Source of the DNA: Sphingomonas phyllosphaerae 5.2
GTDB taxonomy: Bacteria > Pseudomonadota > Alphaproteobacteria > Sphingomonadales > Sphingomonadaceae
Assembly: GCF_000419605.1 (NCBI RefSeq)
Contig: NZ_ATTI01000001.1
Span: forward strand, 3,320,501-3,384,500
DNA length: 64,000 nt
Reading direction: 5' to 3'
The position numbers were made by a program, and so were the translations under genes. The notes beneath the pieces were generated by a model, which had not been told where the DNA came from, ran no database searches, and saw only the letters and a list, made by a program, of their open reading frames with translations. This document shows positions 39,082 through 49,060 of the stretch, one piece after another. Numbering within the stretch: the first letter of the stretch is position 1; each line of letters starts with the position of its first letter.

Positions 39082-40401
39082 CTAGACAGCGCGCAGGACA
39101 GCGTCGAGCGACAGAACGAAGACCAGTCCGAACACGCCGACCAGCGTTTCCATCATCGACCACGACCGGAACGTGTCGCGTAGCGACAGCCCGAAATATT
39201 CCTTGAACATCCAGAAGCCCGAGTCATTCACATGGCTGCACATCAGGCTGCCCGCCCCGATCGCCAGCACCATCAGATTGGCGTCGGCGCCGGTGGCGAC
39301 GATCACTGGCTGGATCAATCCGCCCGCGGAAAGCCCCGCCACCGTCGCCGAACCGACGGCGATGCGGATCACGCACGCCAGCAACCAGCCCAGCGCGAGC
39401 GGCGGCAGTGGCAGCTGCGCGAGTTGCGCGGCCAGCGTCTTGTCGGCACCGCTTTCCACCAGCACCTGCTTGAGCGCACCCGCACCTGCGATGATGAGCA
39501 GGATCGGCGCGATGTCGCGGATCGCGACCCCGAAGCCGTCCATGATCTCGGCGCGCGAGAGTCCGGCGCTCCGCCCCAGGGCAACCATGCCGACCGCGAT
39601 CGACAGCAGCAGGACGATGGTGGGGTTTCCGATGAAGCCGATCGCCGCTGCGGTGGCGGGTGCGAGCGGGGCGTAATGCAACGCGGTCGCCCCCGCGATC
39701 AACACCACCGGCAACAGCGCGCAGGCGAAGCTCGCAAAGGCGCCGGGCAGCGCCCGCTCACGCGCGGCCGTGGCCGCATCGAACAGCGGCGACGCCGTGG
39801 TTGCGATGCCCTTCAGGGTCATTGCGAACAGCGGACCCGCGATCGCGAGCGTCGGGATGCCGACCATCAATCCATAGATCAGCGTGACGCCGAGGTCGGC
39901 GTTCAGCTGCGCCACGACTGCGGTGGGGGACGGATGCGGCGGCAGGAAACCGTGCGCGATCGACAGGCCCGCCAGCAACGGGATGCCGACATGCACCGCC
40001 GGCAACCCCGCGCGGCGCACGATCGAGAAGATCAGCGGCACCATGAGGACGAAACCGACATTGTAGAACAGCGGGATGCCGACGAGGAAACCGGTCGCGG
40101 CCATCGCGATCGGCAGGCGCGACGGACCGCACAGACCGATCAGCGTATCGGCGATCCGCTGCGCGGCACCGCTGTCGGCGATCAGCTTGCCGAGGAACGC
40201 GCCCAGCACGATCGTGATCACGACCGGCCCGATCGTGTCGCCGATGCCCTTCTCGATCGCGCCCGGGATACGCGCGAGCGGAACGCCGAGCAGCAATGCG
40301 GCGAACAGCGCGGCGATGACGAAGGCCAGGAAAGGCGGCGCGCGCAACGTGACCAGCACGATCAATACCAGCAGCGCCGCGACGATCGAGAACAGGATCA
40401 T
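39082..40401 (-). CDS. GntP family permease (gluconate-type H+ symporter)
   Basis: A 439-residue protein with about 12 membrane helices. The GKLIADSGAAQRIADTLI segment, GIPLFYNVGFVLMVPLIFS, and the closing SHVNDSGFWMFKEYFGLS are diagnostic of GntP. Members import gluconate or other sugar acids. No gluconate kinase or regulator lies beside it, so the substrate is open. ATG 40401 is coupled to a 6-codon leader frame that has the only strong Shine-Dalgarno site. Confidence 0.88.
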   Translation of the reverse strand: MILFSIVAALLVLIVLVTLRAPPFLAFVIAALFAALLLGVPLARIPGAIEKGIGDTIGPVVITIVLGAFLGKLIADSGAAQRIADTLIGLCGPSRLPIAMAATGFLVGIPLFYNVGFVLMVPLIFSIVRRAGLPAVHVGIPLLAGLSIAHGFLPPHPSPTAVVAQLNADLGVTLIYGLMVGIPTLAIAGPLFAMTLKGIATTASPLFDAATAARERALPGAFASFACALLPVVLIAGATALHYAPLAPATAAAIGFIGNPTIVLLLSIAVGMVALGRSAGLSRAEIMDGFGVAIRDIAPILLIIAGAGALKQVLVESGADKTLAAQLAQLPLPPLALGWLLACVIRIAVGSATVAGLSAGGLIQPVIVATGADANLMVLAIGAGSLMCSHVNDSGFWMFKEYFGLSLRDTFRSWSMMETLVGVFGLVFVLSLDAVLRAV

Positions 40402-40418
40402 ATCGCGCGTTCGGTCAT
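40398..40418 (-). CDS. Possible 6-codon leader frame upstream of gntP
   Basis: ATG 40418 is preceded by a strong GGGGAGGG and reads MTERAI before a TGA that overlaps the gntP ATG (ATGA). gntP itself has no good ribosome-binding site. A leader that carries ribosomes onto gntP would explain both facts. Alternatively the G-rich site serves gntP at a long distance. Confidence 0.3.
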   Translation of the reverse strand: MTERAI

Positions 40419-40541
40419 CCGGACCCTCCCCTTTTCGTCGGCGCAGCATGGCCGCACGGGCGCAGCGGGGCAAGCGCGCGCGGTTAACCGGCTATTGGGT
40501 CCAGCAGCCCGCCGCGACGACCACCTTCGGGAGGAATCCGA

Positions 40542-41882
40542 TCAATAAGCGTTGAAGGTGAACGGGATTCGCAACGTCGTCCGGACGTCCGCGGCATCGT
40601 CGGTCGCGCCAACCTCGACGTTCCAGTTGATCGTCGTGCTGGGGGACGTACGATAGCTGACGCCGAAGAGCAGCCGACCGATCTGAAGGTCGCGGCTCAC
40701 CGCGGTCATCGCCTCGCCGAGTTCCTGCGTTGTCTGGTTCAGCGACCGCACCCGCGTCTTCGTCCCCAGCGCCCAGGTCTGCGCATAACCGAAGCTGATC
40801 GAGGTGCGCGGGTTCAGCGCGATGGCGATGCCCGCGCTGGCGGATGGCTGGCTGCCCGGTGCGACGCGCTCGATGTACGCTGCGCCGATCTGCCGGTTGA
40901 TGTCGCGCGCGAAATTGTAGGTATAGCCAAGCGTCGCGAACAGCACCGCCGGGTCGGTCGGAAGAATGGCGGTCAGGTTCGGCGTAAGGCCCCAGAAGCC
41001 GGCGCCGGTCGCGCCCTTCAACGCATTGCCCAGCGGGTCGCGGCGGACGCGGAACGGGTCGGTGCCGGTCGGCGCCACCGCCTGCACGCCGGCGATCAGG
41101 TAGGGCGCACCGTTCTTGCCGTCGGTGAACTGGTAACGCAGCCCGAAATCCACGTCGCCGATGTTCGCGCCGCTGACCGGGCGGTCTAGTTGCCCGGCAT
41201 TGGGTTCGGTCGGATTGGCGACCGGCGCCAGCACCGACTTGTCGGAGCGGTACACGAACGGCAGCCGGCCGTTGACCTCCAGCCTGCTGGTCAGCCCCAG
41301 CCGCCCGACCGTGCCGACCGTCAACACGTCCTGCCGGCTTTCGTTGATGTCGAACACGCCGATCAGCACCGCTTCCGGGATCTGCACGCCACGGAACACC
41401 ACCTGGTTGCGGTCGGCGCGCGCATATTCGAAGTTGACCTCGACCGTCGCCCGTCCCGCCTTGGTGATGATCCCGCCCTGTTCGGAGAGCACCGCGACTT
41501 GCACCTGCCGCTGGTCGGACGGCGCCTCGCCGACGGTCTGCACCTGCCCCGCGGCGGAGGCGGATGGCGGCGGCGCCGGCGGCGGGGACGCCGGCAACGG
41601 CACGCCGCCGGGCGGCAGCGCGGTCTGCGCGACCTGGCTCCCCGCAGTGCCGCGTCCCGACAGGCGCGCTTCCAGCCGATCGATCCGCGCACGCTGTTCG
41701 TCCAGCGCGCGCTGCTGGCGGTCAAGCTCCTGCCGCTCGGTGGCCAGCGTTCGGCGCAGGTCCTCCCCGTCGTCCACCGCGGCGGGTATGGCCGCGGTGG
41801 CCGGCGACACCGGCTGCTGTGCCCACGCCGGGGCGGCGATCAGGCCGAGGGAAAGAAATGCACTGGAGGCCGCGGTTCGCAT
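40542..41882 (-). CDS. FapF-like outer-membrane protein: coiled coil plus beta-barrel
   Basis: A 446-residue exported protein. It has a signal peptide (1-21), a charged coiled coil (about 38-76, LRRTLATERQELDRQQ... heptads) and a Pro-rich linker (88-110). The rest is alternating beta-strands typical of an outer-membrane barrel, closing with aromatic FNAY. Pseudomonas FapF, the pore that exports amyloid subunits, has the same order: signal, trimerising coiled coil, linker, barrel. It is the last gene of the five-gene operon, 28 bp after the preceding stop. Assignment rests on architecture and neighbours. A generic phenol-pathway-type transporter barrel is the alternative. Confidence 0.65.
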   Translation of the reverse strand: MRTAASSAFLSLGLIAAPAWAQQPVSPATAAIPAAVDDGEDLRRTLATERQELDRQQRALDEQRARIDRLEARLSGRGTAGSQVAQTALPPGGVPLPASPPPAPPPSASAAGQVQTVGEAPSDQRQVQVAVLSEQGGIITKAGRATVEVNFEYARADRNQVVFRGVQIPEAVLIGVFDINESRQDVLTVGTVGRLGLTSRLEVNGRLPFVYRSDKSVLAPVANPTEPNAGQLDRPVSGANIGDVDFGLRYQFTDGKNGAPYLIAGVQAVAPTGTDPFRVRRDPLGNALKGATGAGFWGLTPNLTAILPTDPAVLFATLGYTYNFARDINRQIGAAYIERVAPGSQPSASAGIAIALNPRTSISFGYAQTWALGTKTRVRSLNQTTQELGEAMTAVSRDLQIGRLLFGVSYRTSPSTTINWNVEVGATDDAADVRTTLRIPFTFNAY

Positions 41883-41910
41883 CGATTCAGTATCCCCTTT
41901 TCCTGTCTGC

Positions 41911-42627
41911 TCAGCGCGGTCCAGCGGCCTCGGTCGCGATCCGGTTGATCATCAGCACGCCGTTCATCAGCCCGGCCGGCAGCCCGACCAGATTGACGTT
42001 GACGGTGCTGACGGTGTCGATGACGCGGTCGTTGGCGGTGTTCGAGATGACCGCCCCCGTCGCCTGACCCACCAGATGGCGGATCTCGGTCGTCGGCGTC
42101 ACCAATTGCACCTGGCTCCCGCGATCGTCGCTGGTCAGCCGGATAGCGCCCGGCCCCGCGGCGACCGCCGGACCGTTCGCGGTGACCCGCACCGGGGTCT
42201 CGCCCGCGGCGTCCAGCCAGCCGGCGGTCGGTCCCGACACGATGTTCACCGCCGCGGGTGCGCCGGCGGCGGGCGCGGTCACGACGGTGCCGGTGGGCGT
42301 GCGCGAGACCGAGACCGTCGGCCAGTTCGGATCGCCGGTGGCGACCGTGACGGTGCCCGGCGCTTCGCTGGGGCTGGTCGTGCCGTCGGTGAACACACGC
42401 AGCCCGGCGGCCTCGCTGGAAAAGATCGTGTGCAGTGCCAGCACACCGTCGATGCGGGTCTGGATATCGATGCCGATCGCGACGTTCAGCCCGTTGGGCA
42501 ACATCAATCCGCCGCGCATCGTCGCCAGTTCGCGATCCGGCACGCGCACCGGCGCGCCGGGAGGATCATCGCTCGTCGGCGGCGCCGCGGCGGCCAGCGC
42601 GACCGCGATCAGGGACGCGATCGACAT
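41911..42627 (-). CDS. Secreted protein of unknown function in the Fap-like operon
   Basis: A 238-residue protein with a short signal peptide (about 1-15). A conserved-looking segment RELATMRGGLMLPNGLNVAIG (residues about 33-52) is followed by a beta-rich, Thr/Val/Pro-rich body. There is no cysteine. The RGG-x-GL-x-IG pattern suggests a small dedicated domain; the rest is low in charge. It starts two bases before the C39 peptidase stop, so it is certainly part of the same operon. A chaperone, minor fibre subunit or FapE-like accessory role is possible, but I cannot name it. Confidence 0.6.
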   Translation of the reverse strand: MSIASLIAVALAAAAPPTSDDPPGAPVRVPDRELATMRGGLMLPNGLNVAIGIDIQTRIDGVLALHTIFSSEAAGLRVFTDGTTSPSEAPGTVTVATGDPNWPTVSVSRTPTGTVVTAPAAGAPAAVNIVSGPTAGWLDAAGETPVRVTANGPAVAAGPGAIRLTSDDRGSQVQLVTPTTEIRHLVGQATGAVISNTANDRVIDTVSTVNVNLVGLPAGLMNGVLMINRIATEAAGPR

Positions 42628-42628
42628 C

Positions 42629-43339
42629 TCAGAACTCTCCCAGGCGTGGGCGGGTCAGCGCCAGTTGCGCGCTCTCCAGCGGGTCGGCGCTCAGGAACGG
42701 GCGACCGCGCGGCGCGCGCTCCAGGTCGGCGGCCATGTTGAAATGCGACTGCCCCACCGCGTCGCGCCCGCTGACGACGAAGAAGACGCCGTTCCATTGC
42801 TTCGCGAAACGCCCGATCGTCTCGCGGCGCAGCCCCAGCGACGGGTCGCCGAGCAGCAGCGTCTGGTCGTCGATCCCCTTGACGACGACGAAGTGCCGAT
42901 AGCCGTCGAAATCGATCAGCGCGATGCCGGGCACCCGCGCCCTGGCGATCTGCTCGATGCTCACCTTGAAGCCGTCCGCCGCGATGCCACGCGCTGCCAG
43001 GTAGCGCTTCATGTCGAGGAGCGAGAAGCCCAGCCGGCGGATCTGCGCCTGGTCGCCGTCGTGGAACATGCCGAGGAAGACGCTCTGTTCGTTCTGCGGA
43101 TCGGCATAGTGGAAGCGCAGCAGCGTCGCGAGCGCCGCCGATCCGCAGCTGAAATCATATTGCTGTCGCACCACCGTCTCGAACCGCCGCCCGATCAGGC
43201 TGGTCACCGGCATGGCGAAGTTGAGCGTCGGCGAGAAATTCACGATGTTGCCGCCCTCGGGCAGCGGCATCGCGGTGCAGCCGGCGGTCGCCAGCAGCGC
43301 CGCCGCCGCCCAGGAGTGCGATCGGAGCGAGCAGCGCAT
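42629..43339 (-). CDS. C39-type cysteine peptidase lipoprotein, FapD-like
   Basis: A 236-residue protein with a lipoprotein signal (LLATAGC, Cys21). The peptidase C39 catalytic set is Gln59 and Cys65 in QQYDFSCGSAALATLL, His149 in YRHFVVVKG and Asp165 in LGDPSLG. Stand-alone C39 proteases of this kind (FapD) accompany functional-amyloid operons in Pseudomonas and are needed there for fibre assembly. It would sit in the periplasm, anchored to a membrane. It follows the small subunit gene after two bases. C39 domains of bacteriocin exporters are fused to ABC transporters; there is none here. Confidence 0.8.
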   Translation of the reverse strand: MRCSLRSHSWAAAALLATAGCTAMPLPEGGNIVNFSPTLNFAMPVTSLIGRRFETVVRQQYDFSCGSAALATLLRFHYADPQNEQSVFLGMFHDGDQAQIRRLGFSLLDMKRYLAARGIAADGFKVSIEQIARARVPGIALIDFDGYRHFVVVKGIDDQTLLLGDPSLGLRRETIGRFAKQWNGVFFVVSGRDAVGQSHFNMAADLERAPRGRPFLSADPLESAQLALTRPRLGEF

Positions 43340-43341
43340 CG

Positions 43342-43716
43342 TTACTGGTTGATCGCCACGTTCACGTTCAGCGACGAATTGATGGAAACGTTGTTTCCGG
43401 TGTTCGCACTGAGCAACGACAGGCCATTGAGGTTCTGGAAGGAATTGGGGTCGAAGCTGATCGTGCCGGTCTCCGAATGGCCGTTCACGCTATTGCCGCT
43501 GACGGTGCTGGTGTTCTGCGCACGGATCACCTGCGACAGGTCCGACTGCCCGGTGACCGTCCCGAGCACCGCATTGTCGACGGGCACCGCGCCACCGAAC
43601 GGAGCCGCCTGTGCCGCGCCCGCCTGCACCGAGAGCGTCGCTGGCGCCGCTTGCGCGATCGCGGTCGCAGGAAAGGCGGTGAGAAGCGACGCCGCGACGA
43701 TGAAAAGGATACGCAT
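43342..43716 (-). CDS. Small secreted protein, candidate minor amyloid subunit
   Basis: A 124-residue protein with a clean signal peptide (1-22, TAIAQA). The mature part has no cysteine or lysine and is rich in Asn, Ser, Thr, Val and Gly. Its last 40 residues share the spaced signature FQNL-x-GL, NTG, NS, NV with the C-terminus of the large repeat protein encoded just upstream. By position and composition it resembles a FapB/FapA-type minor subunit or nucleator. It precedes the C39 peptidase by two bases. Confidence 0.65.
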   Translation of the reverse strand: MRILFIVAASLLTAFPATAIAQAAPATLSVQAGAAQAAPFGGAVPVDNAVLGTVTGQSDLSQVIRAQNTSTVSGNSVNGHSETGTISFDPNSFQNLNGLSLLSANTGNNVSINSSLNVNVAINQ

Positions 43717-43788
43717 GTCCCGATCTCCCGATCGATCGAGGAAAAAGGAGGAGGGGCGGCATCGCCACCCCTCCCCGTCCCTCGCGTG

Positions 43789-45453
43789 TTACTGACCACC
43801 GCCGAGGTTGATCGCCCCGGCCGCGACGCTGACGTTCACCGCGGAATTCTGCGATGCACCGGCGCCGGTGTTCATGTTCAGCGACTGCAACCCGGCGAGG
43901 TTCTGGAACGCGCCGTCGCCCGTGGTCAGGCTGTTGTTGACCGAGGCGCTCGCACCGCCCGGGGTCTGGCTATAGTCCACCCGTACGCCGGTGACGTAGC
44001 TGGCGAGCGTCGCCGAGGAGACGACCGCACTGGCGCCGAAGACGTTCGACGTCGATGCCGCACCCGTGCCCGCCGTGGCCCAGCCATTGCTGCGCGACGA
44101 ACTGTCGGCATAGCTGGCGTCGCCGTTGGTGGCGACGGAGCCGCTGCCCTCGTTGCTGGCGGTGTTGCGACGATCCGAATTGTCATTGGTCGACATGTCG
44201 CGGCTGTCCGTCGCGTCGCCGTTGTTCGCCGCGACCTGCGCGCCGCTCGCGGAGCTGGTCTGCGAGCGGTTCGAGCGGTCGGAATTGTCATTGCTCGACA
44301 TGTCGCGGCTGTCCGTCGCGTCGCCATTGTTCGCCGCGACCTGCGCGCCGCTGGCCGAGCTGGTGCGCGAACGGTTGGAGTTGTCCGAATTGTCGGTGCT
44401 CGACATATCGCGGCTGTCGGTGGCGGAACCGCTGCCGTTGTTCGCCACCTGCGCGCCCGAAGCGGTGCTGGTCGACGTGTTCGTCGTGCTCGACTGGTTG
44501 CGATTGTCGCTGGCCGTGCTGCCGCCACTCGCCGCCACCTGCGCGCCGCTGGCCGAATTGTCGGTGCTGGTGTTGGTCGTCCGCGAATTGTCCGATTGGT
44601 CGCGGCTGTCGGTCGCCGATCCGCTGCCGTTCGAGGCGACCTGCGCACCCGAAGCGGACGAGGTGCTTGTGGTGTTGGTGGTCGAGCGATCCGAATTGTC
44701 GGTGTTCATCGTCGAACGATCGGCGTTGTCGTTATAGGTGTACGAACGGTCGGCATTGTCGGTGTTGGTCACCGACTGGTCGCGGTTGTCGGTGGCGCTG
44801 CTGCCGTTGTTGGCCGCCACTTGCGCGCCGCTCGCCGACGAGTTCGTCGTGTTCGTGGTGGTGGAGCGATTCGAATTGTCGGTCGTCGAACGATCGGCGC
44901 TGTCGTTGTAGGTGTACGAACGGTCGGCATTGTCGGTGTTGGTCACCGACTGGTTGCGGCTGTCGGTGGCGTTGCTGCCATTGTTGGCGGCGACCTGCGC
45001 GCCCGATGCGCTGCTGCTGTCGGTGCGGGTCTGCGAGTTATTGGAATTGTCCGTGGTCGAACGATCCGACGCGTCTGTCCACGTCGACGAAGCGGTGTTG
45101 TTGCTGTCGTTCACGGAGTTGTTCGTACGCGAATTGTTCGAATTGTCGGTCGTCGACCGGTTCGACGCGTCGGTCTGCGTGTTGGTGCTGGTCGCAGTGT
45201 TGTTGCTGTCGTTCACCGAGCTGTTCGTGCGATATTGCGCATTGTTGGAATTGTCGGTGTTGACGGCGGTGTTGGTGGAGCTGTTGCTCGAATCGGTGTT
45301 GTAGGCACCGCTCGCCACGTCGTTGCCCGCGGCGTTGCCGGTGTTGGTGTTGGTCGTCGTGTAGCTCGAGCCCGGCTCCGTGGTCTGTGCGCTCACGGGC
45401 GCGGTCCAGGCCAGGGCGGGTATCGAAGCGGCGATCAGAAGACGCGATTTCAT
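43789..45453 (-). CDS. Large Asn/Ser/Thr/Asp-rich repeat protein, candidate major amyloid subunit
   Basis: A 554-residue exported protein with a signal peptide to about residue 22. The mature chain has no Cys, Lys or His, only two Glu, and is dominated by N, S, T and D. Seven imperfect repeats of SASGAQVA followed by an NG/ATDSRD-type turn begin near residues 149, 207, 267, 300, 330, 367 and 402. They are spaced by NTDN and DRST blocks. A different C-terminal domain (about 465-554) ends with the FQNL ... NTG ... NS ... NV signature. This is the layout expected of a FapC-like fibre protein. ATG 45453 has AAGGG nine bases before it; ATG 45462 is the alternative. Confidence 0.7.
   Translation of the reverse strand: MKSRLLIAASIPALAWTAPVSAQTTEPGSSYTTTNTNTGNAAGNDVASGAYNTDSSNSSTNTAVNTDNSNNAQYRTNSSVNDSNNTATSTNTQTDASNRSTTDNSNNSRTNNSVNDSNNTASSTWTDASDRSTTDNSNNSQTRTDSSSASGAQVAANNGSNATDSRNQSVTNTDNADRSYTYNDSADRSTTDNSNRSTTTNTTNSSASGAQVAANNGSSATDNRDQSVTNTDNADRSYTYNDNADRSTMNTDNSDRSTTNTTSTSSASGAQVASNGSGSATDSRDQSDNSRTTNTSTDNSASGAQVAASGGSTASDNRNQSSTTNTSTSTASGAQVANNGSGSATDSRDMSSTDNSDNSNRSRTSSASGAQVAANNGDATDSRDMSSNDNSDRSNRSQTSSASGAQVAANNGDATDSRDMSTNDNSDRRNTASNEGSGSVATNGDASYADSSSRSNGWATAGTGAASTSNVFGASAVVSSATLASYVTGVRVDYSQTPGGASASVNNSLTTGDGAFQNLAGLQSLNMNTGAGASQNSAVNVSVAAGAINLGGGQ
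44176..45009 (-). repeat. Seven imperfect coding repeats in the fibre-like protein
   Basis: Each unit of roughly 30-60 residues holds ASGAQVA followed by Asn/Gly and then ATDSRD or ASDNRN, with the DNA repeated at lower fidelity. The last two units are nearly identical at both levels, pointing to recent duplication. The repeats are in frame and protein-level, not CRISPR or satellite DNA. Confidence 0.85.
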
Positions 45454-45602
45454 GTCTGGCATCCCTTGTTGGCCGGTTCAGCCGGCGATTTTTCGAGCCC
45501 GGCGTTCCTGCGGACCGGACCGAATCGGAGATACCGTTAATCTTTCGTTAACTATTCCTCCCCTTCGCGGGCGACCGTTCATCCCGTTCGACAACGCCTT
45601 CC

Positions 45603-45620
45603 ACCCCCAAACGAGGGGGT
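45603..45620. promoter_or_regulatory. Inverted repeat in the divergent Fap-like/LuxR intergenic region
   Basis: ACCCCC-AAACGA-GGGGGT is a perfect 6-bp palindrome followed by AAAAA. It lies in the 295-bp AT-richer space between the fibre gene (start 45453) and the LuxR gene (start about 45749). As no T run follows on either strand, an operator is more likely than a terminator. Promoter elements for both directions should be here; none was placed with confidence. Confidence 0.4.
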
Positions 45621-45748
45621 AAAAATCACTGCTATTCCGCTTGTTTCAAAATGGGATACACTGGATCGAATAGGTAAACGGCAAGTTGGCGTACAAAGAG
45701 GGGACCCGACACAGGGAATCGGGCCTCATCGTTGGGAGAGGTAGTGCA

Positions 45749-46942
45749 TTGCTGGCAGAGAAAGATCTGCCCATGCTCTTTCGCGGAGCCGTTGCGCGCG
45801 GCGATATGTTGCCGGCGCGCGATGGAGAGAGCGTGCGGTATTCACCATTGGAGCCACAACCGTCGGCACGACGGATTGCACGGGTCACTCTCAACGACGA
45901 CGGGAAGACGGTGTCTCCGCTCCCCGACGACGTCGCGCTGGTCGCCGGGCACTTCGCTCGCACCTTGGGCGCGGACGGCTGGGCACTGACCGGCACGCAC
46001 GAACACGGCGCAACGCGGTGCTTCGCCGCCGATGGTCTCGACGACGCGATGTGCGCGGCGCTGCTGCAGGTCGCCGACCGGATCGAGCCCGGCTTCGGGC
46101 ATCACGAGCCGGCGCCGTTGTGGTGCGATCGATTGCACGCTTCGCAGGCAGCGGCACTGGTGATCCCGGTACAGCGGATGCCCGGCCACCCCTGCACCTT
46201 CGTCAACCTCGTCCTTCACAAGCCGGATGAGGAGGCGCGCCGCGGCATCGAAAGCGCGTGCCTGCGCGAATGGCCCAGTGTCGCGGCATATTTCCGGCTC
46301 TGGCAGTCCGCGCGGGTTGCGCAGCGGCGGATCGACGGTGTCGAGGCGGGGCTGAACCTCGTCGCGATCGGCATCGTGCTGCTGTCCGGTGACGGTCACA
46401 TCGTCTTCGCCAACGATACGGCGCGTCTGCTGATGGATCGGCACGACGGCATTCGCGAACATCGCGGACAGGTGCAGGCGACCGATCGCGCCGACGCCGC
46501 GGCCCTGTCGACCGCCATCGGCTACGTCCTGTCGCAGAGCGCGGCGGAAAAGACCGATCGGATGCCGCTGCTGACCCTGCGTCGCGAACAGGGCCCGCCA
46601 CTCGTAACGTCGTTCGTGTGCGCGCCGCGCTCCGAGATGGCGGACGAGGACGGCGCACTGCTCTTCTTCGTCGATCCGGGGCTCGACATCCACCAGCTCG
46701 CCGAGCCGGTGTGCAAGTTGTTCCGGCTGTCACGGGTCGAAACCGAACTCGCATGCCTGCTGGCGTCCGGGCAGACGCTCGCTGCGGCCGCGGAATCCCT
46801 GCACGTCAAGTTGGGGACGGCGCGCGGCTATCTGAAGCAAGTGTTCGTGAAGACCGGCAGCAATCGCCAGGTCGATCTGGTCCGCCTGATCTTCAGCAAT
46901 CTTGTCCGCACATCTGTGCACGATAATTTGCGGCATCGCTGA
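45749..46942 (+). CDS. LuxR-family transcriptional regulator
   Basis: A 397-residue regulator with a PAS/GAF-like N-terminal region and a C-terminal LuxR-type helix-turn-helix (about 325-385: FRLSRVETELACLLASGQTLAAAAESLHV then GTARGYLKQVFVKTG). Its gene is divergent from the fibre operon and shares the intergenic region, so it is the natural candidate regulator. TTG 45749 is chosen because GGGAGAGG lies about nine bases before it. ATG 45773 and TTG 45686 are alternatives. The signal it senses is unknown. Confidence 0.8.
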   Translation: MLAEKDLPMLFRGAVARGDMLPARDGESVRYSPLEPQPSARRIARVTLNDDGKTVSPLPDDVALVAGHFARTLGADGWALTGTHEHGATRCFAADGLDDAMCAALLQVADRIEPGFGHHEPAPLWCDRLHASQAAALVIPVQRMPGHPCTFVNLVLHKPDEEARRGIESACLREWPSVAAYFRLWQSARVAQRRIDGVEAGLNLVAIGIVLLSGDGHIVFANDTARLLMDRHDGIREHRGQVQATDRADAAALSTAIGYVLSQSAAEKTDRMPLLTLRREQGPPLVTSFVCAPRSEMADEDGALLFFVDPGLDIHQLAEPVCKLFRLSRVETELACLLASGQTLAAAAESLHVKLGTARGYLKQVFVKTGSNRQVDLVRLIFSNLVRTSVHDNLRHR

Positions 46943-46953
46943 CCTGGATCAAC

Positions 46954-47808
46954 ATGCCAGCGCATCTGCTTCGCAATCACCAACGTAACTCCGGCACAAA
47001 ACAGCCTGGAGCAGGTTTATTGGAGAGACTGTCGATCACCCCGCGGCCGGAGCGGCATCCGCTCGCGTCGGGCGATGTCGTCGCCGAGCATTTCGGCGGC
47101 GTTCCGTTGCGCGCGGACGGTCGGACGATATTGCTGCCCGGCGGGCCACGCATCTACGTCCTGCACGGTGATGCCCCAGGCAGCCGGCTGGTGATCCGGC
47201 GCCGGATCTTCGCACCGCTGCCCGCCATCGGCTTCATCGGCCCCACCACCAGCGTCGCGCGTCTCGATCACGGCGGCGTGCTCCTGTCCGGCGTCCGGCT
47301 CCGCTCGACGGCGTGGGGGATGTTGTTCGATGGCGACGTGTCGCGCTACACCGACCGGGTCGTGCCGCTCGCGGCGATCGACCGCTCGTCGCCTACGGCT
47401 GTTCGCGGCCCACGGGGCGACGAAGCTGCCACCTTCGCTCCGTGGCTGGACGCGCGACTCGAAGCGGGTAACGGTCGCGACCTTCAGGCGCAGCGCATCA
47501 TCGAGCTGATCGACGCCAGCCCACGTTCCACGGTGGCGGAGATCGCGGCGTCGCTGCGCCTCACGCCGCAGCGGATGTCCGCCACCTGCCTGGAGAACTT
47601 CGGCCTGCCGCCCAAGCGTCTGCTGATGCTGCGGCGCTTCGTGCGCGTGCTTCGACGTTTGCTGGCGGATCCGACCGCCACCGGGCGCGCCTTGTGGGAG
47701 GCGGGTTATGTCGACCACTCGCACTTCGCGCGGGATTGTCGCCAGTTTCTGGGATCCAGCCTCCAGGCGTTCCGCGAGCTGATCGAGCACCGCGACGATC
47801 CGGCGTGA
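46954..47808 (+). CDS. AraC-family transcriptional regulator
   Basis: A 284-residue protein with a mostly beta N-terminal half (about 40-170). The C-terminal two-part AraC DNA-binding domain runs from about 178 to 278: [21 protein letters not shown] and [30 protein letters not shown]. It begins 11 bp after the LuxR gene, so the two are probably one transcript. TTG 47020, with GGAG eight bases before it, is a possible later start. Target genes are not shown; the adjacent Fap-like operon is the likeliest. Confidence 0.82.
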
Positions 47809-47824: not shown

Positions 47825-49060
47825 TCATCCCTCGGCGGCGATCTCCTTCAGCGGCCGCGACGCATCCTCCAGCGCCGCGACGGACAGCCGCGCGCCGCCC
47901 GCCACCAATGCACGGCCCTGCACATAGTCCTTCGTCGCGTTGACCGCGTCGATCGCCACCACCCGGCCGCCCCTGAGATAGACGACCGAGAAGCGACGCT
48001 CGGCGGGTATGCCGCGCACTACTGCGTGCTCGAACCCGGCCGACAGCCCGACGGTCTGCAACTTCAGGTCGTACTGGTTGGACCAGAACCACGGCACCGC
48101 GTCGTAATCCGCGCCGCGTCCGACGATGTCGCGCGCGGCGGTCGTCGCCTGGTCGTTGGCGTTCTGCACCGATTCCAGCCGGATCGTGGCGCCATCGGCG
48201 TAGCGGTTGGCATGCGCGGCACAGTCGCCGATCGCATGGACGTGCGGCAGGCTGGTGCGACAGCGCGCGTCGACGCGGACGCCGTTCCCGACTGCCGCCC
48301 CCGCCGCCTCCAGCGGCGCCACCGCCGGCACGATCCCGATCCCGACGATCACGACGTCGGCAGGCAACAACGTCCCGTTCGCCAACCGCACCCCGCCGAC
48401 GCGCTCGTCGCCCTCGATGCAGGCGACCGTCGCACCCAGCATGATCCGTACGCCGCGCGCGCGATGCTCCGCCTCGTAGAAGCGCGACAGCGGTTCGCCC
48501 GCCACGCGCGCCAGCACGCGGTCGAGCGCCTCGACCAGCGTCACCGCCTTGCCGAACTTGGTCAGCGCCGCCGCTGCCTCCAGCCCGATATAGCCACCGC
48601 CGACCACCACGACGCGCTGCGCCTGCGCCAGTTCGTCGAGCAGCCGGTCGACGTCGGCGCGCGTCCGCACCGCATGTACGCCGTGCAGGTGGTGGCCGTC
48701 GCAGGTCAGCCGCCGCGGCGCACCGCCGGTCGCCCAGATCAGCTCGCCATAGCCGACCGTGCGGCCCGCATCGGTGCGCACCGCTTGCGCCGCTGCGTCC
48801 ACTGCCACCACGCCCTCGCCCAGGTGCAGGTCGATGCCGCGCTCGGCCCAGAACGACGCCGGCCGGATCAGGAGGCGCTCGAACGACTTTTCACCGGCCA
48901 GATATTCCTTCGACAACGGCGGGCGCTCGTACGGCAGCTCCGGCTCGGCCGAGACGATCGCGATCGTTCCCGCGAACTTCTCCTGCCGCAGCGCGATCGC
49001 CGCCGCCGCGCCGGCATGCCCTCCTCCGACGATGAGGACGTCATAGCGTTCTGCCGTCAC
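47825..49060 (-). CDS. FAD-dependent NAD(P)H:ferredoxin-type reductase
   Basis: A 411-residue pyridine nucleotide-disulfide-type flavoprotein of the ferredoxin/rubredoxin reductase group. The FAD loop GGGHAG is at 12-17. The [14 protein letters not shown] segment, the second Rossmann loop [13 protein letters not shown] (about 152-164) and HAIGDCAAH are present, with a reductase C-terminal domain around [10 protein letters not shown]. It would reduce a ferredoxin partner of an oxygenase or P450; no such partner is adjacent. It starts at GTG 49060 and is convergent with the AraC gene. Confidence 0.88.

What the first reader, a model, noticed from the sequence alone, without database searches (positions are those of the whole stretch)
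40542..46942. A Fap-like functional amyloid/secretion operon in a sphingomonad
Seen: five minus-strand genes with gaps of 1-72 bp encode a coiled-coil plus beta-barrel outer-membrane protein, an orphan secreted protein, a C39 peptidase lipoprotein, a small secreted protein and a large low-complexity repeat protein. Two regulators are divergent. Known: Pseudomonas fapABCDEF combines fibre subunits, the C39 protease FapD and the FapF export barrel with an N-terminal coiled coil. My recollection is that fap operons were reported mainly from beta-, gamma- and deltaproteobacteria. Inference: this is a diverged alphaproteobacterial system with the same parts, able to build a surface fibre.
Basis: partly seen in the sequence, partly recalled or inferred. 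Interest (0 to 1): 0.88.

Follow-up and report, generated by a model that had tools for sequence, protein, structure and literature searches.

The report
Fap-like secretion operon, double-glycine leaders
This five-gene cluster in a sphingomonad is a diverged relative of the Pseudomonas machine that exports amyloid fibres, and its sequences mark a likely cutting site for the machine's protease, whose target has so far only been suspected.

Summary
In detail: five adjacent minus-strand genes encode a low-complexity repeat protein, a small secreted protein, a C39 protease, a FapE-related (E-like) protein and an outer-membrane barrel. The barrel is a FapF homologue by sequence and fold; the C39 protein is nearest FapD. 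It is not canonical Fap: NCBIfam cut-offs are not reached, canonical FapB/C repeats are not found, and its FapD lies in a separate clade (89 rows, 100/98) beside canonical FapD (14 rows). In 80 named loci, chosen for FapD similarity, all keep small–FapD–E-like and 76 show a barrel, 66 of them within 1 kb. The new point is the site: E-like carries a double-glycine-type leader (DRELATMRGG), RGG in 37 of 37 aligned sequences and 80 of 88 Fap-like loci read, where canonical FapE has RGR, RGK or HGK (13 of 14 loci read). FapE as FapD's substrate was already proposed (PMC5557850) but reported undetermined (PMC6173800). I infer that FapD removes this leader in the periplasm before export through FapF. 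Fibre or amyloid formation is untested.

The parts
43789..45462 (-). Large secreted low-complexity repeat protein (557 aa; 83% N,T,S,Q,G,A,D; 7 copies of ASGAQVA): candidate fibre or matrix subunit
   Evidence: no Pfam or NCBIfam match; low-complexity ORF in the same place in 70 of 80 named loci
43825..43920 (-). Single C-terminal Fap-like motif of the large protein (residues 515-546)
   Evidence: E 1.7e-4; 4e-8 after three rounds
43748..43776 (-). Hairpin of 13 pairs followed by a T run between large and small genes: possible attenuator
   Evidence: (8 terminator-like sites found, mean 3.9 in shuffles): a pattern only
43342..43716 (-). Small secreted protein (124 aa): candidate minor subunit or nucleator
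   Evidence: a relative lies just upstream of FapD in 80 of 80 named loci
43546..43581 (-). Leader-like motif VDNAVLGTVTGQ in the small protein (second Gly replaced by Gln)
   Evidence: L at -7 in 81 of 87 rows, G at -2 in 77 of 87, -1 varied (R 30, G 23, K 13, Q 11, M 9, A 1)
43345..43455 (-). C-terminal Fap-like motif of the small protein (residues 88-124)
42629..43339 (-). FapD-like C39 cysteine protease, probable lipoprotein; Q59, C65, H149, D165
   Evidence: FapD NF058616 E 2.7e-44; four residues kept in 101 of 101
41911..42627 (-). E-like (FapE-related) secreted protein, 238 aa
42508..42531 (-). Double-glycine-type site ELATMRGG (residues 33-40); predicted FapD cleavage after G40
40542..41882 (-). 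FapF-like outer-membrane export barrel
   Evidence: NF058560 E 2.4e-44; 18 FapF chains, TM by target 0.79-0.86
41655..41768 (-). Predicted N-terminal helix (residues 39-76), read as coiled coil
45686..46942 (+). Divergent LuxR-type regulator; relatives in 31 of 35 named Sphingomonadales loci
46954..47808 (+). AraC-type regulator; relatives in 4 named loci (L077-L080)

Best explanation
A Fap-like two-step secretion system. Shown: a FapF-type barrel, a FapD-type C39 protease with its catalytic residues, an E-like protein with a double-glycine-type leader, and two further low-complexity or repeat-bearing proteins encoded together, with small-FapD-E-like order kept across a distinct clade. Inferred: all five cross the inner membrane by Sec; FapD, perhaps lipid-tethered, removes the N-terminal leader of E-like after Gly40 and possibly that of the small protein at its degenerate site; this licenses export of E-like, small and large proteins through FapF; on the surface the large protein is the bulk fibre or matrix subunit, the small one a nucleator or minor subunit, E-like the anchor or initiator. 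A neighbouring LuxR regulator probably controls it in sphingomonads. That FapD acts on FapE is a published proposal; the site and its conservation are what is added here.
For: FapF identity by sequence and fold. FapD catalytic residues in 101 of 101. RGG invariant in 37 of 37 aligned sequences, the window's plus 36 chosen from 84 homologues, 36-88% identical to it, and in 80 of 88 Fap-like loci read. An L..xRGG-type pattern in 82 of 105 E-like and FapE proteins against 53 of 6603 other ORFs and a mean of 1.19 of 105 after shuffling. The only stretch that E-like shares with canonical FapE at profile level is this leader and its flank. The model puts a short helix at 31-38 just before the GG, at low confidence. 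The C-terminal motif model, seeded on small proteins and iterated three times, reached 152 of 6799 ORFs: 87 small, 45 of 72 large (all at the C-terminus) and 20 others, all fap or Fap-like substrate genes by locus position, five of them canonical FapB (L027, L070, L073, L075, L076). Published: FapD C38A abolishes FapC secretion, and no FapE peptides are seen in the first ~70 residues (PMC5557850, passages). In 4 of 5 newly drawn genomes a leader of this type was found beside the C39 gene.
Against: No protein was shown to be cut, exported or fibrous. Conservation alone does not prove cleavage: canonical FapE has R or K at P1, and FapD residues did not covary with P1 (the TGK clade keeps Fap-like FapD residues). 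The small protein's last position is Gly in only 23 of 87 rows; the window's is Gln. Direct profile comparison of the C-terminal motif with the canonical repeat is weak (score 14.8; 1 of 40 column-shuffled controls as high), and the SGAQVA repeats match neither. 27 of 72 large proteins show no C-terminal motif. The barrel gene is more than 1 kb from E-like in 10 of 76 named loci. The named loci were chosen by FapD similarity and the E-like model was iterated on them.
Confidence: 0.68

Rival explanations
1. The operon is simply a canonical fap operon whose FapB and FapC have drifted beyond recognition; cleavage target and mechanism are those of Pseudomonas Fap.
For: Same D-E order and FapF fold; the C-terminal motif model reaches five canonical FapB proteins after three rounds.
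Against: Separate FapD clades with 100/98 and 97/91 support; the canonical repeat model gives nothing below E 1 in Fap-like loci while hitting 30 proteins, all in the 14 canonical loci; canonical operons coexist in the same bacterial family; different P1 residue.
Confidence: 0.15
2. The large and small proteins form a non-amyloid matrix, stalk or adhesin; the C-terminal motif is an export signal recognised by FapF, not an amyloid repeat.
For: The motif is usually single and at the very C-terminus (45 of 45 large hits end within 25 residues of it); the SGAQVA array is hydrophilic and unlike Fap repeats.
Against: Four relatives have 4 to 33 copies (L122, L124, L135, L142), as fibre repeats would; canonical FapB shares the motif.
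Confidence: 0.4
3. The RGG motif is a structural or docking element (for instance for FapF), not a protease site; FapD acts as chaperone or cuts FapF.
For: P1 is R/K in canonical FapE and does not track FapD residues; PMC5557850 names GG/GA motifs in FapF as another candidate.
Against: Register matches the double-glycine leader consensus (recalled: LSxxELxxIxGG); FapE N-terminal peptides are missing in Pseudomonas (PMC5557850); in 4 of 6 more distant C39-barrel pairs the gene just upstream of the C39 gene carries a GG or AGG leader, a fifth an A-R version, none seen in the sixth.
Confidence: 0.25
4. The barrel is a solute porin and the cluster a chance neighbourhood.
For: Pfam gives only a sub-threshold Phenol_MetA_deg match; COG4313 channels share the fold (4rl8, TM by target 0.70).
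Against: FapF is the top hit by sequence and structure; a FapF-type barrel is in 76 of 80 named FapD loci, within 1 kb of E-like in 66.
Confidence: 0.02

Closest known systems
Fap functional amyloid system of Pseudomonas (fapABCDEF)
   Same: FapF-type barrel, FapD-type C39 protease, FapE-related protein just after FapD, two secreted proteins upstream
   Different: No canonical FapB/C repeats, no FapA recognised, GG instead of GR/GK at the leader, separate FapD clade, barrel gene on the opposite strand in 25 of 76 named loci
Acinetobacter Fil system (FilB C39, FilC barrel)
   Same: NCBIfam second-best for both proteins (FilB E 2.4e-31, FilC 3.2e-16); FilC and FilF raised 71- and 12-fold in a biofilm (PMC8792954, passages)
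   Different: Lower scores than FapD/FapF; other Fil proteins not compared here
Double-glycine leader processing by C39 domains of bacteriocin ABC transporters
   Same: C39 family and catalytic residues; leader register (consensus recalled)
   Different: Here the protease is free-standing with its own export signal, and exit is through an outer-membrane barrel, not an ABC transporter

Membership tests
Fap system (sensu stricto) | FapF barrel with N-terminal coiled coil | tested here: met
   but 151.8 bits against an NCBIfam equivalog cut-off of 700; coiled coil and trimer inferred from one predicted helix
Fap system (sensu stricto) | FapD C39 protease with catalytic residues | tested here: met
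   (151.1 bits, below the cut-off of 330)
Fap system (sensu stricto) | FapE | tested here: inconclusive
   NF058559 E 0.0076, residues 3-53 only; 1 of 37 aligned sequences matches it; hhalign 93.8% over 39 columns
Fap system (sensu stricto) | FapB and FapC with (almost always three) imperfect repeats | tested here: not met
   model from 21 canonical repeats gives no match in window operon proteins at E up to 10; a distant link to FapB appears only through
Fap system (sensu stricto) | FapA (often absent) | tested here: inconclusive
   no NCBIfam match; presence of a FapA model in the library not verified
Fap system (sensu stricto) | SDS-resistant amyloid fibres | not testable with these tools
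   needs experiment
Double-glycine leader substrates of C39 peptidases | [E/D][L/M]xxxxGG leader encoded next to a C39 protease | tested here: met
   consensus recalled
Double-glycine leader substrates of C39 peptidases | Cleavage after GG | not testable with these tools
   needs N-terminal sequencing

The most novel reading that the evidence does not exclude
Free-standing C39 proteases paired with FapF-type barrels form a general secretion pathway, of which Pseudomonas Fap is one branch: Sec-exported substrates carry a second, double-glycine-type leader that the periplasmic protease removes to license outer-membrane export. The window's clade keeps the plain GG form, so E-like is the FapD substrate and canonical FapE is cut at the matching RG-R/K site.
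Probability: 0.5. Interest if true: 0.8.

Novelty: new variant of a known kind. Interest (0 to 1): 0.66.

Why it matters
FapD activity is needed for secretion, and FapE has been proposed as its target (PMC5557850, PMC12822426), but the substrate is described as undetermined (PMC6173800) and no canonical C39 site was recognised (PMC5557850). The clade seen here gives a prediction to the residue that is easy to test. Surveys anchored on FapB/C repeats (PMC12822426) would miss this sister class, so the route may be used more widely than Fap counts suggest.

Tried and rejected
Covariation of FapD residues with the P1 residue (G against R/K): rejected; differences follow clade, the TGK Sphingomonas clade keeps Fap-like FapD residues.

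SGAQVA repeats as Fap imperfect repeats: no match. Direct profile link between the small C-terminal motif and Fap repeats: weak (1 of 40 controls as high).

Leader check in genomes drawn. My pattern was run on 7 loci; L167 failed it because its C39 motif differs, and was then read by eye. Five are from genomes not met before: a leader is seen in 4 (L167 AGG; L172 two AG leaders; L179 RGR in the small gene, by eye; L186 RGG downstream) and none in L168. L166 and L171 are from genomes met before; none seen in either.

Literature: the listings, and passages of PMC7716237, showed no description of this operon type or of a double-glycine-register leader in FapE. PMC5557850 does point to GG/GA motifs in FapE and proposes FapE as FapD's likely substrate (passages); PMC12822426 repeats that FapD is thought to process FapE's N-terminus (passages). 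PMC6173800 reports FapD-FapF pairs in five further phyla (section 6 read; its supplement was not available to me).

Change after rechecking: interest lowered from 0.70 to 0.66 and interest if true from 0.82 to 0.80, because FapE as the substrate is already proposed in print.
Full report
OBSERVATION. One search confirms five minus-strand genes with gaps of 72, 2, 1 and 28 bp, and two plus-strand regulators. NCBIfam ranks the barrel nearest FapF (E 2.4e-44, 151.8 bits against a cut-off of 700) and the C39 protein nearest FapD (E 2.7e-44, 151.1 bits against 330), with Acinetobacter FilC and FilB second; the 238-aa protein matches FapE only over residues 3-53 (E 0.0076); the repeat protein has no match and the small protein only an insignificant, unrelated one. 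The barrel's nearest solved structure by sequence is FapF 5o65 (E 4.9e-33). The barrel model (27 sequences, mean pLDDT 73.9) has a helix at 39-76, a low-confidence stretch and a beta-barrel. Its 18 best PDB matches are all FapF chains (TM by target 0.79-0.86), then the COG4313 channel 4rl8 (0.70). The own genome holds one match to the FapD model and none to the FapE model at E 0.001.

NEIGHBOURHOOD. A FapD model search found matches at E 1e-10 or better in 23 of 289 alphaproteobacterial genomes, the window's included. Of the 25 places outside the window I fetched wider DNA for 17, from 15 genomes; the 8 left out were weaker (85 bits or less). Three loci (L027, L028, L029; the last two from the window's own family) are canonical fap operons with FapB/C repeats; eight (L030-L037) resemble the window, L035 without a barrel in the DNA held; six (L038-L043) are more distant C39-barrel pairs. 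Canonical operons from the phylum were found through the FapE model (20 of 398 genomes matched); 11 of these genomes were fetched.

OPERON CONSERVATION. A model from the E-like family, run for four rounds over 6799 ORFs in 109 loci with no position given, returned 196 hits. By my distance filter 78 lay just upstream of FapD, 101 just downstream and 17 neither; 12 of the 17 are true neighbours lost because the FapD start was called too early. With these added back, and L123's small gene assigned through the C-terminal motif, all 80 named loci have the small gene and the E-like gene. 76 of 80 have a barrel in the DNA held (51 same strand, 25 opposite); it lies within 1 kb of E-like in 66 and 1.3-7.2 kb away in 10. 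70 of 80 have a low-complexity ORF just upstream of the small gene (288 of all 3398 ORFs of that length are so composed, these included). A LuxR-type relative lies in 31 of 35 named Sphingomonadales loci, mostly just upstream of the large gene; the AraC in four.

PHYLOGENY. In a tree of 109 C39 domains the Fap-like rows (89), canonical rows (14) and distant rows (6) each form one side of a branch, support 100/98, 97/91 and 100/98. The Fap-like side holds Sphingomonadales, other alphas, Burkholderiales, Methylococcaceae, Ectothiorhodospira, Acidithiobacillus and Geobacteraceae. An Anaerolineae record (L142) is near-identical to an alphaproteobacterial one, and an Ignavibacteria record (L108) is a 4.4-kb contig; both may be binning errors. 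In the window's family 33 of 199 genomes have a match to the FapD alignment at E 1e-15; both classes are likely among them.

LEADER. In the alignment of the window's E-like protein with 36 of its 84 homologues, L34, R38, G39 and G40 are invariant. The three residues were read in 101 of 103 Fap-like and canonical loci: RGG 80, RGR 9, TGK 5, RGK 3, RGA 2, FGR 1, HGK 1 (not aligned were L120 and L075). The 13 canonical loci read have RGR, RGK or HGK; the fourteenth (L075) reads TGK by eye. Of 88 Fap-like loci read, 80 are RGG, 5 TGK (one Sphingomonas clade), 2 RGA and 1 FGR. The L..xRGG-type pattern occurs in 82 of 105 E-like and FapE proteins, 53 of 6603 other ORFs, and on average 1.19 of 105 after shuffling. 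E-like and canonical FapE align only here (39 columns, probability 93.8, E 1.8e-7). The small protein has a similar but looser motif. In the distant C39-barrel pairs the gene just upstream of the C39 gene has a GG (L039, L040), AGG (L041, L042) or AR (L038) version; none was seen in L043. In five newly drawn genomes four show a leader, one does not. This supports a general link but rests on few distant loci.

SUBSTRATES. A canonical repeat model from 21 repeats hits 30 proteins, all in the 14 canonical loci; the 14 other matches listed have E of 1.1 or worse. A model of the small proteins' C-terminus, iterated three times, hits 152 proteins: 87 small, 45 of 72 large (all at the C-terminus), and 20 others that on inspection are all fap or Fap-like substrate genes by position, five of them canonical FapB. 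Direct profile comparison is weak. I read this as a distant FapB-type motif, usually single and C-terminal.

LITERATURE. PMC3792158 (parts 1 and 2 of 5 of the text read) limits Fap to beta, gamma and delta classes as of 2013. PMC12822426 (section 10 read; other passages by find) screens GTDB by requiring FapB/C repeats near other fap genes, finds Fap across many Pseudomonadota families and some other phyla, and says FapD is thought to process FapE and FapF. PMC6173800 (section 6 read, passages) states that FapD's substrate is yet to be determined and reports FapD-FapF pairs elsewhere. PMC5557850 (passages) shows that FapD C38 is needed for FapC secretion, sees no FapE peptides in its first ~70 residues, proposes FapE as the most likely substrate, and says that Fap proteins have no canonical C39 sequence. 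The double-glycine consensus itself is recalled, not from a call.

VERDICT. A new variant of a known kind: Fap-like export machinery with its own subunits and a clearer protease site than Fap itself. My odds: machinery kinship about 0.95, E-like as FapD substrate about 0.7, surface fibre about 0.5, true amyloid about 0.35.

Noticed in passing
L028 (G244), L029 (G145): Canonical fap operons with FapB/C repeats in the window's own bacterial family, outside the three classes given in the 2013 survey.
   Followed up: partly
genome G763: Two matches to the FapD alignment (287 and 182 bits), suggesting a Fap-like and a canonical system in one genome; judged by score only.
   Followed up: no
L039, L040, L041, L042, L167, L172: Distant C39-barrel pairs with small proteins upstream that bear GG, AGG or AG leaders; they were not picked up by the E-like model.
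   Followed up: partly
L135, L142, L033: Giant repeat proteins (2273-2427 aa) upstream of the small gene; L135 and L142 show 33 copies of the C-terminal motif.
   Followed up: no
window 43748-43776: Hairpin of 13 pairs with a T run between large and small genes, a possible attenuator setting subunit ratio.
   Followed up: no
window 39082-40473 and 47825-49060: A GntP-type permease and a ferredoxin-reductase-like flavoprotein flank the operon and its regulators; no link seen.
   Followed up: no
L142, L108: Anaerolineae and Ignavibacteria records that look like binning errors.
   Followed up: no
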